Source of the DNA: Caldilineaceae bacterium
Lineage (GTDB): Bacteria > Chloroflexota > Anaerolineae > Caldilineales > Caldilineaceae
DNA: 5,719 nucleotides
Assembly: GCA_012032975.1 (NCBI GenBank)
Contig: JAAUPU010000242.1
Coordinates: 1 to 5,719, forward strand
Reading direction: 5' to 3'
Below the pieces are notes generated by a model. It did not search any database. It was given only the letters and a program-made list of their open reading frames with translations, and was not told where the DNA came from. A program made the translations under genes and the position numbers. Below are positions 1 to 5,719 of the stretch, piece after piece. The first letter of the stretch is position 1, and each line of letters begins with the position of its first letter.

Positions 1-47
1 CAGTAATGCGCCGCAAAGATCAAGCGGAACACTGCGCGGAGCCGGTT

Positions 48-75
48 AGTATACCAGCCTATTGGCCGGTTTCAA
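48..75 (-). promoter_or_regulatory. Sigma70-like promoter after the rpsJ stop, pointing off the left edge
   Basis: Read on the minus strand, TTGAAA (70-75) and TATACT (48-53) are separated by 16 bases, close to the TTGACA-17-TATAAT consensus. It begins 6 bases after the S10 stop codon and would drive whatever lies beyond position 1. The spacer is itself an imperfect palindrome, ACCAGCC-TATT-GGCCGGT on the plus strand (53-70). If the flanking DNA is a normal S10 operon, the next gene would be rplC, but no L3 start is visible in these 81 bases. Confidence 0.5.
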
Positions 76-81
76 ATTTTG

Positions 82-183
82 TCAGTTGAGCTTTATCTGG
101 ACGTCTACCCCTGCCGGCAATTCCAGCTTCATCAGGGCATCGACCGTCTTTTCAGTCGGCTCCACGATATCCATCAGCCGCTT
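82..183 (-). CDS. rpsJ: 3' fragment of ribosomal protein S10 (uS10), last 33 residues
   Basis: Translating the minus strand from 183 to the TGA at 82-84 gives [18 protein letters not shown] followed by [15 protein letters not shown] and stop. This is the C-terminus of ribosomal protein S10, a 30S head protein also used in transcription antitermination as NusE. Compared from memory with E. coli RpsJ, about 26 of the last 32 residues are identical, including [13 protein letters not shown] and AGVDVQI. The first 70 or so residues of S10 are absent. Upstream, the reading frame continues without a break into a polyprenyl glycosylphosphotransferase, which also has KRLMDI at this point, so the exact border cannot be fixed within about 163-189. 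The VEPTEK...GVDVQI wording looks proteobacterial, unlike the neighbouring genes; that is an inference. Identification is firm; whether the junction is real is doubtful. Confidence 0.9.
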
Positions 184-1029
184 GCCAAAGCGCTGGAAGC
201 CGTCGATGGCGGGTCGCGTAGACCGATCAGCGGGATGCCACCCAAGCTTTCGATAGTGGCCCCGTGAAAGGCCAGATCGAAATAGTCGGGCACGACCCGG
301 AGGCGCACCGGCAACTCGTGTAGCCGCGCGACCAGGTTAGCAAGCCGAACGTGGGCATGAAGGGGCAACGCGATGATGACCTCATCCACGTGCTGCTCTC
401 CCACAATCGAGACGGCGTCATCGATGCGACCGATTACTGGAATCCCCAACAACATTTGGCCGTTCTTGTCCGGGTCGTCGTCCAGGAAGCCAACCACTTC
501 ATAGGCTGCCCAATGTTGACGCCGAAACTGAAACACCAGGTCTTTGCCAACACGGCCGGCGCCGACCACCAGGATGCGCGTCACACCGTTGCTCTGCGGG
601 CGGCGTACTCGATGCCAGAAACGCAGGAAGAGTCGAAAGCCGATCAACAAGCAAAGCGCCAACACGAAAAAGTAGGCAAAGGTGAGGCGGGGAAAACTCC
701 TTTTTTGCCAAATAGAGCAAACCAGCCAGCGAAAGCGTGGCCAGCGTATGGGAGACCAGAACGCGCTGTATTTCTTCGATCCAGAAGATCACACGGCGCG
801 GGGTATACACTGAACCCAAAAAAAAGATGGTCGCCCACATGACCCCTACGATCAGGTGGAGGGTGGGAGTAGGCGCATAGAAAAATCCGTCAGCCCACTG
901 CGGCAAAACGGTCGGCCCCACAGGCACAACATAGCGCAACCGCATGGCAACAGACAGAGCAGATTGAATCAGCACAAGATCTACCAGGAAGAGGAAGACC
1001 ATATAGTTCGTGCTAAATCGCTTCAACAA
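163..1029 (-). CDS. Polyprenyl glycosylphosphotransferase, N-terminal part only; two frameshifts, catalytic domain lost
   Basis: Family role: transfer of a sugar-1-phosphate to undecaprenyl phosphate at the membrane, the first step of exopolysaccharide assembly. Visible here are four membrane segments (about residues 9-29, 57-75, 89-107 and 115-132) and then a CoA_binding_3/Rossmann-like domain starting [13 protein letters not shown], with [17 protein letters not shown] and [10 protein letters not shown]. The C-terminal sugar-transferase domain (KR.FD then membrane helix and catalytic core, about 200 residues) should start at KRLMDI (183-166), but the sequence becomes ribosomal S10 there. Two single-base losses break the frame: at GGGGAAAA (689-696), where [13 protein letters not shown] needs one more base, and at 211-214, where GACCCGCC should read as codons for D-P-A. 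The start is TTG at 1029 (giving MLKRFSTN), with GGGAG 9 bases upstream; an in-frame TGA lies three codons before it. As given it cannot be catalytically active. Confidence 0.85.
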
Positions 1030-1474: not shown

Positions 1475-2543
1475 GGCTGTTGCCAGCGTTCGACGTTGAA
1501 ATGATGGATTTCGTGCAGGATACGCGGAACGTCGTAGGTCAAATGCCAATTGGGGAAATGCGCCATCAGCTTGCTGTTGTCGCTAATCCACCAAAATGTG
1601 GTCTCCCACGCGATTCTCATCCGAATAACACCACTGGAGCTTGCGCTCCGCGATCTCCTCGCAGAGGTCAATGGCCTCCAATATCGAGCAGTTGCTATGC
1701 CGTCCGCCGCCGATGTTATAGACTTCCCCGACCCCGCGGCGCCCGATAGAACTCGCCAAAAGCTCGGACCAGATCCGAGCTATGGATGTTGTCGCGCACC
1801 TGTTTGCCTTTGTACCCAAACACGGTGTAAGGCGTGCCTGTGACCGTACATTTCATCAGATAGGCCAGGAACCCGTGGAGCTGAGCGCCGGAGTGATTTG
1901 GACCCGTCAAACAGCCTGCTCGGAAACAGGCGGTTTTCATGCCAAAGTAGCGACCATATTCCTGAACCAGCATATCGGCAGCGACCTTTGAGGCGCCGAA
2001 AAGACTGTGGAGCGTCTGATCGATCGACATGTCTTCTCGAATTCCAGCAGCGTAGGTGTGGGTTTGCTCGACCTCCCAGCGCTGTTCGGACTCAAACAGC
2101 GGCAGTTGGTTGGGCCTGTCGCCGTAGACTTTGTTCGTTGACGTAAAGATGAAGGGCGCGCCCGCGGCAAACCGTCTGGTTGCTTCCAGGAGGTTCAGCG
2201 TGCCATTGGCGTTGACGGTGAAGTCGGTCTGCGGATCGGTGGCCGCCCAGTCGTGCGAAGGTTGCGCGGCCGTGTGGATCACCAGGCCGACGTCGGCGCT
2301 ATGCTCGCGAAAGAGGGTGTCGATGGCTTCTCTGTCACGAATGTCGATCTCGTGATGATGATAGCGATCTCCCAGCTCCTCGCTCAGACGCTCGCGGCTC
2401 CATTTTGTGGATGCGTCTTCGCCAAAGAAATATCCTCGGAGGTCGTTGTCTATGCCCACCACCGTCATGCCCTGCTTTGCGAAAAACCGAGTGGCCTCGG
2501 AGCCGATCAGCCCGGCCGATCCAGTCACAATGGCGGTTGTCAT
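1456..2543 (-). CDS. NAD-dependent sugar epimerase (CDP-tyvelose/paratose 2-epimerase type), two frameshifts
   Basis: Extended short-chain dehydrogenase acting on a nucleotide sugar in the cytoplasm, likely supplying an unusual sugar for the glycan. The Rossmann motif TGSAGLIG (residues 7-14) is followed by the NAD-binding acidic D32, then [58 protein letters not shown] and VYNIGGG. The usual YxxxK tyrosine is Phe182 (FGASK, with K186), which I recall as typical of this subfamily. Two extra bases break the frame: one in the C4 run near 1732-1735 (restoring [12 protein letters not shown]) and one in AAAA at 1593-1596 (restoring GDHIWWISD). Once corrected the protein is about 361 residues, full length. 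The ATG at 2543 is preceded by GAGAGG, 8 bases away. The exact substrate is not decidable; CDP-paratose is the family reference. Confidence 0.87.
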
Positions 2544-2557
2544 CGTGTATACCTCTC
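2544..2557 (-). promoter_or_regulatory. Ribosome binding site of the epimerase
   Basis: GAGAGG on the minus strand (2552-2557) lies 8 bases before the ATG at 2543. This fixes the start at MTTAIVTG and excludes a longer N-terminal extension, which would lack family similarity. Confidence 0.65.
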
Positions 2558-2733
2558 GCGTGAAAGTCGTTCTCTCTGGCTTGTCCATGCGCTGGACAGG
2601 TGCGCGGACCCCACACCGCACCATCGACTGCCACATGGATACAACTGCATGGCCGACATGGGACAATGAGTACGCGGCCCATCGTGTGCCGCTCAATTCT
2701 GCCTTGAACCCATCTTGTGTCGCAAGAACGGGC

Positions 2734-2739
2734 TATGCT
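2734..2739 (+). promoter_or_regulatory. Possible -10 box just before the ligase start
   Basis: TATGCT lies 11 bases before the ATG at 2751, with no good -35 at 16-18 bases and no Shine-Dalgarno motif between it and the start. If used, the mRNA would be leaderless or have only a few leader bases. It is a weak candidate based on position alone. Confidence 0.25.
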
Positions 2740-2750
2740 ACGATGGCGCC

Positions 2751-4087
2751 ATGACCTTACGCCACTGGTGGGACACAACCTTCGCGGGCGAATTGCTGCT
2801 GCTGGCGATGGCCGCACCGCTGCTCTACTTCCCAGCCCGATTCCCCAGTTGGACCGTGTATGTCGCTATCGGTCTGCTGTCGGCTGGATGGATTTGGCGA
2901 CGGCGTCGGCTGGGCATCTGGTTCCAACGCACACCGGCCGACTGGCCGGTTTTCTTTCTCCTTTTGGTGATGCTTCCCGTCTCGCTGTGGGCCGCGCCCG
3001 AACCTCTACGCAATCAATATTCAATTCCCAAAGCCTATATCCTGATCTGGAATTTCTTCTTGTTTTGGACCATTGTGACCCATGCCAGCCGCTCTTGGGC
3101 ACTGGATTGGGTGGCCATCGCCGGCTTCATCGCGGCGGGGACTCTTATCGCGCTTGTTGCGCCGCTGGGCATCGACTGGCTCTACAAGTACCCTGGTATC
3201 GACGCTGTTCTGAGTCGCGTTCCCTCGCCATTGGTCGGCGTCTTTCGTGGTGCGGACAGCGGTTTTCACCCCAACCAGGTGGCTGGCACATTGTTGTATG
3301 TGCTTCCGCTGCTGCTGGCTCTCACCGCTGCCAGCATCTACCGACTGCACCGCGCCCGGGTTCGACACAAACGTGACTGGGCGTTGGCCTTGCTGTTGGT
3401 AGCCTGTTCTGTGGTAATGGGTGGCGTGTTTCTGCTGACCCAGTCGCGCTCCGGGCTGGCCGGGATAACTGCCGGGGTCATGGTGATGATATTGGTCAAC
3501 TGGCGCTGGGGAAGGTGGGCGCTGCTGGCAGGGAGCGCTGCGCTGCTGGCGACCATGTTCATCATGCCATCGACGATGTTGCAATTGATCGCCGATGCGC
3601 ACCGGTGGAAGCCTCGGGCGGCGGTGGAACGCTAGGTTTTCGCCAGGAGGTATGGACGCAGGCAGTTGCTGCCATCCACGATTTTTCCTTCACGGGACTG
3701 GGGCTAGGTGCGTTCCGTGAGATCGTGCGGCTGCTCTATCCGCTTGGCATCCCGCCAACCTACGATATCGCCCACGCCCACAATTTTCTATTGCAGAGCG
3801 CGCTTGACTTTGGCTTGCCTGGTGCGATTGCCCTCTTTGCCATCCTGTGGGTCGCCATCGTCGCCGTCGTCCAACTGTGGCAAGGTAGCAATGGACACAG
3901 AGGCCAGCAGAGCAAGAACGTGCATCTTCTGTCGATTGGCTTTGCCGGCAGCCTGGCAGCTCAAGGGGTATTCGGCCAGCTTGACGCGATCAGCATGGGC
4001 GCCAAGACCAACTTCTTGTTTTGGACCTTGGTCGCATTGATCTTTGGCCTGCTGATCAGGACAACGGATAGCGACGCAGGCCGCTGA
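2751..4087 (+). CDS. O-antigen ligase/polymerase family membrane protein (Wzy_C), one frameshift
   Basis: Polytopic inner-membrane protein expected to polymerise or ligate lipid-linked glycan on the periplasmic/outer face. Numerous hydrophobic segments are visible (about residues 12-27, 35-49, 66-80, 97-110, 119-139, 178-196, 209-229, 236-250 and 256-272), separated by basic loops. Family-typical pieces are FRGADSGFHPNQVAGTL (residues 166-180), LLTQSRSGLAG (228-238), GLGLGAFREIV and AHAHNFLLQ; the conserved Arg of QSRSG and the Asn/His of HPN and HNF are present. One base is lost at about 3597-3625: the first frame runs into a TAG at 3633-3635, while PVEASGGGG...FRQEVW continues in the next frame to the TGA at 4087. 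Corrected length is about 445 residues, normal for the family. It is the only plus-strand gene, and it overlaps the next gene tail to tail. WaaL and Wzy cannot be told apart from sequence alone. Confidence 0.85.
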
Positions 4088-4855: not shown

Positions 4856-5473
4856 TCATCTGCGGACGGCCACGAGCGACTTTTTGAGGCCGGCGAAACG
4901 CTCTCGCCAAATCTCCGCGTCGGGAAAAAGGGCAACAAGATCGTTCTCATCAAGCAGGCAGATTTCTTCCAGGAATTCATCACATTGCTGCTGCGATGGA
5001 CGGGTCAAGATACCCCACACAGTGAAATTCCGCAGCAGCCTGCGACGCAAGCTTCTGGGCACGAAGTGGATGAACGGTGTGAGGAGGTGCGGTTCAACAA
5101 AAAACCACTTGTTCGGCGTCTGGACATAATACCGTCTGCCAAACGCGGCGAACCTCTTCGGCAAACCTCTGCTGATGGTGCCGCGAATGTAAATGTTCAA
5201 TGACTGAATTGCTGTAGACGATGTCGAACGACTTGTCGACGAACGGAAGAGATCGTCCATCCCCAACGACCCAACGTCGACTGGATGTGCTGGAGCTGAA
5301 ACGTTCAGCAACGTGAGATCTGGGGAAATTTCAACGAGTGTCCAGTTAAATGCGCTGCCGCCGACGTCAAGAATTGTTGTCTGTTTGTCTATCCCAAACT
5401 GGCTTACAAAGCGCTGCATGCGCTTTCTTCGGAATAGTCGGCCCGCAGCGCGGTAGATCGAGTGGATGTTCAT
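4856..5473 (-). CDS. Class I SAM-dependent methyltransferase with a hidden double frameshift
   Basis: An open frame of 205 residues whose ends belong to a sugar-cluster methyltransferase. Motif I is TTILDVGGSAFNW (32-44), followed by LTLLNVSAP; near the C-terminus are YYVQTPNKWFFVEPH (115-129) and a basic, amphipathic tail. Residues about 78-113 of the open frame are low-complexity Ser/Thr/Arg and make no sense, but the neighbouring frame over 5245-5135 reads FVDKSFDIVYSNSVIEHL and QQRFAEEVRRVW, the expected methyltransferase motifs. So one base is missing near 5244-5250 and one is extra near 5131-5135; the two cancel and leave the frame open. The corrected length is unchanged. The start ATG overlaps the upstream stop as ATGA (5470-5473), implying translational coupling to the glycosyltransferase. 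The methyl acceptor is unknown; a sugar or lipid-linked glycan is likely from context. Confidence 0.82.
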   Translation of the reverse strand: MNIHSIYRAAGRLFRRKRMQRFVSQFGIDKQTTILDVGGSAFNWTLVEISPDLTLLNVSAPAHPVDVGSLGMDDLFRSSTSRSTSSTAIQSLNIYIRGTISRGLPKRFAAFGRRYYVQTPNKWFFVEPHLLTPFIHFVPRSLRRRLLRNFTVWGILTRPSQQQCDEFLEEICLLDENDLVALFPDAEIWRERFAGLKKSLVAVRR

Positions 5474-5719
5474 ACATACTCATTTCGTCGGCTGAAGTCT
5501 TTGCTCTCGATGGCACGCTCGTAGATTGCAATAAGGGCGCTGTAGTTGACTTCTGCCGAGTAGAGATGTTCATACTCAGCGCGCGCAGTCCGGCCCATCG
5601 CTTGCAGTTCGACTGGATGCGCCCATTGCCCATTCGGCCGCTGCAGCCAGAGATTGGGCATCGTCAGGTGTGAAGAGCAAACCCGTATGCCCGTCTCGGA
5701 TGATCTCCGCCATGCTGCC
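5470..5719 (-). CDS. GT-B (family 4-like) glycosyltransferase, C-terminal end, one frameshift; runs off the right edge
   Basis: The last 82 or so residues of a nucleotide-sugar glycosyltransferase. GSMAEIIRDGHTGLLFTPDD is the typical C-terminal-lobe motif around the second Glu of E-x7-E, which contacts the donor sugar, followed by AQSLAAAAEWAM. An extra base in the G-run ATGGGCGC (ccc at 5622-5624) breaks the frame; afterwards the protein continues as AHPVELQAMGRTARAEYEHL and ends NEYV at the TGA 5470-5472. The N-terminal lobe and start lie beyond 5719. It is the first gene of the visible minus-strand run and overlaps the methyltransferase start by four bases. Donor and acceptor cannot be inferred from this fragment. 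Confidence 0.8.
   Translation of the reverse strand, partial: AAWRRSSETGIRVCSSHLTMPNLWLQRPNGQWAHPVELQAMGRTARAEYEHLYSAEVNYSALIAIYERAIESKDFSRRNEYV

What the first reader, a model, noticed from the sequence alone, without database searches (positions are those of the whole stretch)
82..220. Sugar transferase fused in register to the tail of ribosomal protein S10 at a shared KRLMDI motif
Upstream of about 183 the minus strand is a polyprenyl glycosylphosphotransferase ending [12 protein letters not shown], just where its catalytic domain should start. From there it is unmistakably the S10 C-terminus ([12 protein letters not shown] ... [10 protein letters not shown], stop). Both families have KR-L-x-D-I at this point, so roughly 20 bases (about 164-183) could be common to both parents. 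That is the signature of an assembler joining two genomes at a short shared word, or of a chimeric read; a genuine microhomology-driven recombination is less likely but would remove the catalytic domain. The S10 wording looks proteobacterial while the other genes look Chloroflexota-like, favouring a cross-genome join.
Basis: partly seen in the sequence, partly recalled or inferred. Interest (0 to 1): 0.75.

Follow-up and report, generated by a model that had tools for sequence, protein, structure and literature searches.

The report
Chimeric contig end, not gene fusion
The 184 bases at one end of this contig are the end of a ribosomal protein gene from an unrelated bacterium, most likely joined by mistake to a sugar-transferase gene at a short word that both genes share; it is an ordinary sequencing or assembly artefact.

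Summary
On the minus strand, a Caldilineaceae-like (Chloroflexota) polyprenyl glycosylphosphotransferase runs to KRLMDI(V). From there the sequence is the C-terminal tail of a gammaproteobacterial ribosomal protein S10. Close relatives of both parents were found. P0121 (91% identical over 233 aa) is identical over ...[19 protein letters not shown], then continues FSIVGILLF into its transferase domain. Seventeen of 120 listed S10 proteins end in exactly [33 protein letters not shown]. DNA homology to S10 genes starts at base 184 or 183 in 48 of 62 matched loci. None of the 120 listed transferase relatives carries an S10 domain. The contig is 5,719 bases long, so the join lies 184 bases from its end. 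The transferase is broken by two one-base frameshifts at homopolymer-like runs (about 689-696 and 208-213), so there is no open fused gene. The best explanation is a misjoin at a shared word of at most about 22 bases (163-184), by an assembler overlap or a homology-driven chimeric read. No reads were available to prove it. Not a real feature.

The parts
185..1029 (-). N-terminal part of a Caldilineaceae-like polyprenyl glycosylphosphotransferase (PF13727 region, up to the start of the missing PF02397 catalytic domain), broken by two frameshifts
   Evidence: PF13727 85.6 bits; P0121 91% identity over 233 aa; most listed relatives are about 476 aa and all 120 carry PF02397
689..696 (-). one-base frameshift at a T/C run (TTTTCCCC)
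   Evidence: frames, sequence; relatives read KKEFPRLTF or KKELPRLTF
208..213 (-). one-base frameshift at a C-rich run (CCCGCC), about 25 bases from the join
   Evidence: frames, sequence; relatives read [13 protein letters not shown]
163..184 (-). stretch that both parents can share (C + codons KRLMDIV, at most 22 bases): the join
   Evidence: P0121 ...[12 protein letters not shown]10 P0002 ...[11 protein letters not shown]; S10 DNA homology starts at 184 or 183 in 48 of 62 loci
82..183 (-). C-terminal tail of gammaproteobacterial ribosomal protein S10, with its stop codon at 84-82
   Evidence: PF00338 29.9 bits, profile end reached; exact 33-aa tail in 17 of 120 listed S10 proteins
1..81 (-). 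probably part of the S10-L3 spacer of the S10 parent, up to the contig end (inferred)
   Evidence: CTGGTATACT resembles TCTGGCATAAT-like words after S10 in some of the 14 rows shown (no control run). A simple L3 motif was found 9-234 bases after the S10 stop in 15 of 43 loci looked at, 513 bases in one, and not found in 27 (L004 and L048 are the same place)

Best explanation
The window is a low-quality metagenomic contig of a Caldilineaceae-like bacterium, and the 184 bases at its minus-strand 3' end come from another organism, a gammaproteobacterium. The two were joined where the transferase and the S10 gene share the codons for KRLMDI(V), at most about 22 bases. Most likely an assembler overlapped reads or k-mers there, or one homology-driven chimeric read (template switching) extended the contig end. 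Shown: relatives of two parents from different phyla, the breakpoint at the shared word, its position near the contig end, the missing catalytic domain. Inferred: that the join is artificial, and by which step it arose.
For: Local alignments to transferase relatives end at query residues 284-289 in 103 of 120 pieces; those to S10 relatives start at 270-283 (121 pieces from 120 proteins), residue 283 being the K of KRLMDI. P0121 is identical to the window through [23 protein letters not shown], then goes on FSIVGILLFSPVML. S10 proteins with the exact 33-aa tail: 17 of 120 listed. Names: Caldilineaceae on one side, Gammaproteobacteria on the other. None of the 120 listed transferase relatives (of 861 found, at lengths that would admit a fusion) has a PF00338 domain, and none holds the S10 words EPTEK or GVDVQI. 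The contig given for the window's own WecG protein is 5,719 bases (P0241), so the join is 184 bases from its end. P0121 and the best WecG relative, P0242, both lie on a contig of 264,313 bases, presumably the same one. Frame changes at homopolymer-like runs point to error-prone sequence.
Against: No reads were available, so coverage and junction-spanning reads were not tested. DNA of the transferase parent was not found at all, and the nearest S10 DNA is 88% identical over 96 bases, so the shared word of 21-22 bases is an upper bound. 17 of 120 transferase pieces run past residue 289 (4 to 292, 8 to 303, 5 to 315); I take this as chance extension but did not dissect it. The host's own S10 could not be compared.
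Confidence: 0.88

Rival explanations
1. A chimeric molecule or read made before assembly by plain ligation in library preparation, so that the shared word is a coincidence.
For: Ligation chimeras in 454 libraries are described (passages of PMC3411829), as are MDA chimeras (PMC1855051, start of abstract in the listing). The join is 184 bases from the contig end, within reach of one read.
Against: The join falls on a word of up to about 22 bases that both families share. PMC3411829 expects shorter overlaps from ligation and used cut-offs of 7 to 9 bases to tell them apart (passages). Homology-driven routes fit better.
Confidence: 0.08
2. A real recombination in a Caldilineaceae-like cell: a piece of a gammaproteobacterial S10 operon joined into the transferase gene by microhomology, removing its catalytic domain.
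For: Nothing in the sequence alone forbids it. In PMC3411829, long junction microhomology (confirmed cases over 10 bp) was taken as a sign of real rearrangements, against ligation chimeras (abstract and passages); by that yardstick the long shared word speaks for this reading as well as for an assembler overlap.
Against: None of 120 listed transferase relatives shows it; the foreign piece runs to the contig end; the S10 tail shows no decay; the locus has several frame changes of the sequencing-error kind; the parents are of different phyla, whereas the rearrangements in that paper are within one genome.
Confidence: 0.03
3. A functional fusion protein in which the S10 tail serves as a new C-terminus of a membrane protein.
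For: The two genes share a frame at the join.
Against: The frame is broken about 25 bases upstream of the join; only the last third of S10 is present (profile positions 65-98 of 98); no other copy among the 120 listed transferase relatives.
Confidence: 0.005

Closest known systems
Chimeric metagenomic contigs joined at shared k-mers (PMC7299287, passages read)
   Same: Sequence from two genomes in one contig, linked through a short shared sequence
   Different: The passages seen stress related species and sequencing errors; here the parents are of different phyla and share only a short conserved word
Polyprenyl glycosylphosphotransferase (PF13727 + PF02397; relatives P0121, P0122)
   Same: N-terminal part up to KRLMDI, 91% identical to P0121 over 233 aa
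   Different: The PF02397 catalytic domain is missing; S10 residues follow instead
Ribosomal protein S10 / uS10 (PF00338), gammaproteobacterial
   Same: The C-terminal 33 residues are identical to 17 of 120 listed proteins
   Different: The first two thirds of the protein are missing

Membership tests
Chimeric (misjoined) contig | The two sides come from different organisms | tested here: met
   Caldilineaceae names for the transferase, Gammaproteobacteria for the S10 tail; judged from nearest relatives, since neither exact parent was found
Chimeric (misjoined) contig | Breakpoint at a stretch shared by both parents | tested here: met
   KRLMDIV in P0121 and in S10 P0002; S10 DNA homology edge at 184/183 in 48 of 62 loci. 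At DNA level the transferase parent was not at hand, so 21-22 bases is an upper bound
Chimeric (misjoined) contig | Coverage step or absence of independent reads across the join | not testable with these tools
   no reads held
Chimeric (misjoined) contig | Relatives have the uninterrupted gene | tested here: met
   all 120 listed transferase relatives carry PF02397
Polyprenyl glycosylphosphotransferase | PF02397 catalytic domain | tested here: not met
   S10 tail and stop codon follow residue 289
Ribosomal protein S10 | Complete S10 fold (profile 1-98) | tested here: not met
   only profile positions 65-98 present

The most novel reading that the evidence does not exclude
A real inter-phylum recombination put a piece of a gammaproteobacterial S10 operon into an exopolysaccharide locus of a Caldilineaceae-like bacterium at a microhomology of about 20 bases, inactivating the priming transferase.
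Probability: 0.03. Interest if true: 0.4.

Novelty: not a real feature. Interest (0 to 1): 0.06.

Why it matters
It shows how a six-residue motif shared by two unrelated families can misjoin two genomes in frame at a contig end. Such joins could enter protein databases as false fusions, or carry a piece of a marker gene such as S10 into the wrong bin (inference). Biologically it is ordinary.

Tried and rejected
A real fusion was rejected: none of the 120 listed transferase relatives has it, and the frame is broken next to the join. The S10 search cannot count as a test for the fusion, because its length limit (query 84 aa) kept out proteins as long as the fusion. An exact 39-base probe across the join had no match in viral contigs. 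To get DNA of the transferase parent I scanned viral contigs with alignment A1: 42 stretches matched a pattern, none was confirmed. The single genome-contig scan, made with the stitched protein, returned 43 S10-type loci and one transferase-type locus (L009, 32%), so no Chloroflexota genome was at hand as a centre and the host's own S10 was not compared. A plasmid search with P0122 listed 10 of 1041 records at 34-43% identity; one of them (H2, Thermomicrobium roseum) was not followed up. The WecG search listed 120 rows, the first being the window's own protein; 8 carry an organism name: 5 are Chloroflexota kinds by my reading (Chloroflexota, Chloroflexi, Thermoflexales, Thermoflexus, Anaerolineales) and 3 are not (Methylothermaceae, Meiothermus, Rhodothermales), so it supports Chloroflexota less cleanly than the transferase does. 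The MAFFT column frequencies past residue 290 are, as I read them, an alignment artefact (KLE.. aligned with the family's IKLEDGG) and were not used. P0001 was at first suspected to be a second fusion; it is not. The exact number of frameshifts in the other genes was not worked out.

Full report
What is there. The minus strand from 1029 down to about 185 encodes the N-terminal part of a polyprenyl glycosylphosphotransferase (PF13727, 85.6 bits). From 183 to 82 it encodes the C-terminal tail of ribosomal protein S10 with its own stop codon (PF00338, 29.9 bits against a cut-off of 21.2, profile positions 65-98 of 98; 56 distinct PDB sequences at E up to 0.1, all named S10 or uS10). The joined reading is ...[41 protein letters not shown].

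Frame. The two genes share a frame only close to the join. Relatives read KKE(F/L)PRLTF and [13 protein letters not shown]. The window needs a frame change at each of these places, at TTTTCCCC (about 696-689) and at CCCGCC (about 213-208). Other genes of the window also seem to change frame, for example the epimerase near 1720 and the O-antigen ligase near 3600 (read; the ligase family matches both pieces; not dissected further). This looks like uncorrected indel errors.

The parents. P0121 is 91% identical over 233 residues and identical through [23 protein letters not shown], then continues FSIVGILLFSPVML. All 120 listed transferase relatives, of 861 found, carry PF02397. Of 120 local alignments, 103 end at residues 284-289 and 17 run on (4 to 292, 8 to 303, 5 to 315). 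On the other side, S10 alignments start at residues 270-283 (121 pieces from 120 proteins), and 17 of the 120 listed S10 proteins end in exactly the 33 residues [33 protein letters not shown]. In one search only the 8000 candidates sharing most words were scored, and 120 of 7977 were listed. The length limit would have kept out a full-length fusion, so the test for fusions rests, whose limits admit it: none of its 120 listed rows has PF00338, and none holds the S10 words EPTEK or GVDVQI.

Taxa. Seven of the 120 listed transferase relatives carry an organism name: five Caldilineaceae, one Litorilinea (a Caldilineaceae genus, recalled) and one soil metagenome. Thirteen of the 120 listed S10 relatives carry one: twelve gammaproteobacterial and one marine metagenome. 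In the collection of 84,980 species genomes the stitched query brought 44 confirmed loci from 99 pattern matches. Forty-three matched the S10 tail; by title 40 are gammaproteobacterial taxa (placement recalled), two 'Proteobacteria' and one 'Actinomycetes' (69% identity, L043); none is titled Chloroflexota. The remaining one (L009, 'Thermoleophilia') matched the transferase part at 32%. The S10 hits depend on the eight-residue pattern MDIVEPTE, so S10 genes without it were not seen; but no Chloroflexota S10 with it was returned.

DNA edge. Of the 66 loci held, 62 had a match to window bases 1-215; six of these (L047-L052) are second fetches of places already among the others (L047 and L008, for example). 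The match begins at window base 184 in 38, at 183 in 10, at 180 in 1, at 176 in 8 and at 174 in 5. Just upstream, the 14 S10 rows shown read ACNCA(C/T) where the window reads TTTGGC, so at most the C at 184 is common. In 369 genomes of the class of G006, 174 had a match at E <= 0.001, best 86% over 100 bases; a Salinisphaera locus reaches 88% over 96 bases. The exact source species of the S10 piece is not in hand.

Place in the contig. The contig length given for the window's own WecG protein is 5,719 bases (P0241), so the window is a whole contig and the join is 184 bases from its end. P0121 and P0242, the best WecG relative (71%), both come from a contig of 264,313 bases. I infer that it is the same contig, so that a sister genome has the continuing transferase in the same kind of locus. 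The WecG names are mixed (5 of 8 Chloroflexota kinds).

Interpretation. The evidence fits a misjoin at a word of at most 22 bases (163-184). Metagenome assemblers can link genomes through shared k-mers and so make chimeric contigs (passages of PMC7299287). Ligation chimeras should show shorter overlaps (passages of PMC3411829, which used cut-offs of 7-9 bases), so an assembler overlap or a template switch is the likelier route. The same paper takes long microhomology as a sign of real rearrangement within one genome, so the shared word alone does not exclude a real event; what speaks against one is the different phyla, the contig end, the error-laden sequence and the lack of a second example. 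Reads are not available, so a real recombination is left at about 3%.

Verdict. It is most likely an artefact, and the lost catalytic domain is then a matter of assembly, not biology.

Noticed in passing
P0001 (141 aa): A database S10 protein with its C-terminal tail of about 35 residues present twice in tandem, the second copy diverged; may be an assembly effect or a real tandem duplication.
   Followed up: no
window 1583-2700 (-), 2715-4087 (+), 4856-5473 (-), 5470-5718 (-): Several other genes (epimerase, O-antigen ligase, a methyltransferase-like frame, a glycosyltransferase-like end; the last two named from the look of the translation only) seem to switch frame too, which suggests indel errors along the contig.
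   Followed up: partly
P0121 (275 aa): The closest transferase relative is itself cut short (275 aa against about 476, abrupt end after YQAPRRRKWQAI), so that record may carry frameshifts too.
   Followed up: no
L014: A record titled Endozoicomonas sp. G2_2 has an S10 tail match with the same figures as the Salinisphaera loci L017 and L020 (74%, 79.57% DNA identity); possibly mislabelled.
   Followed up: no
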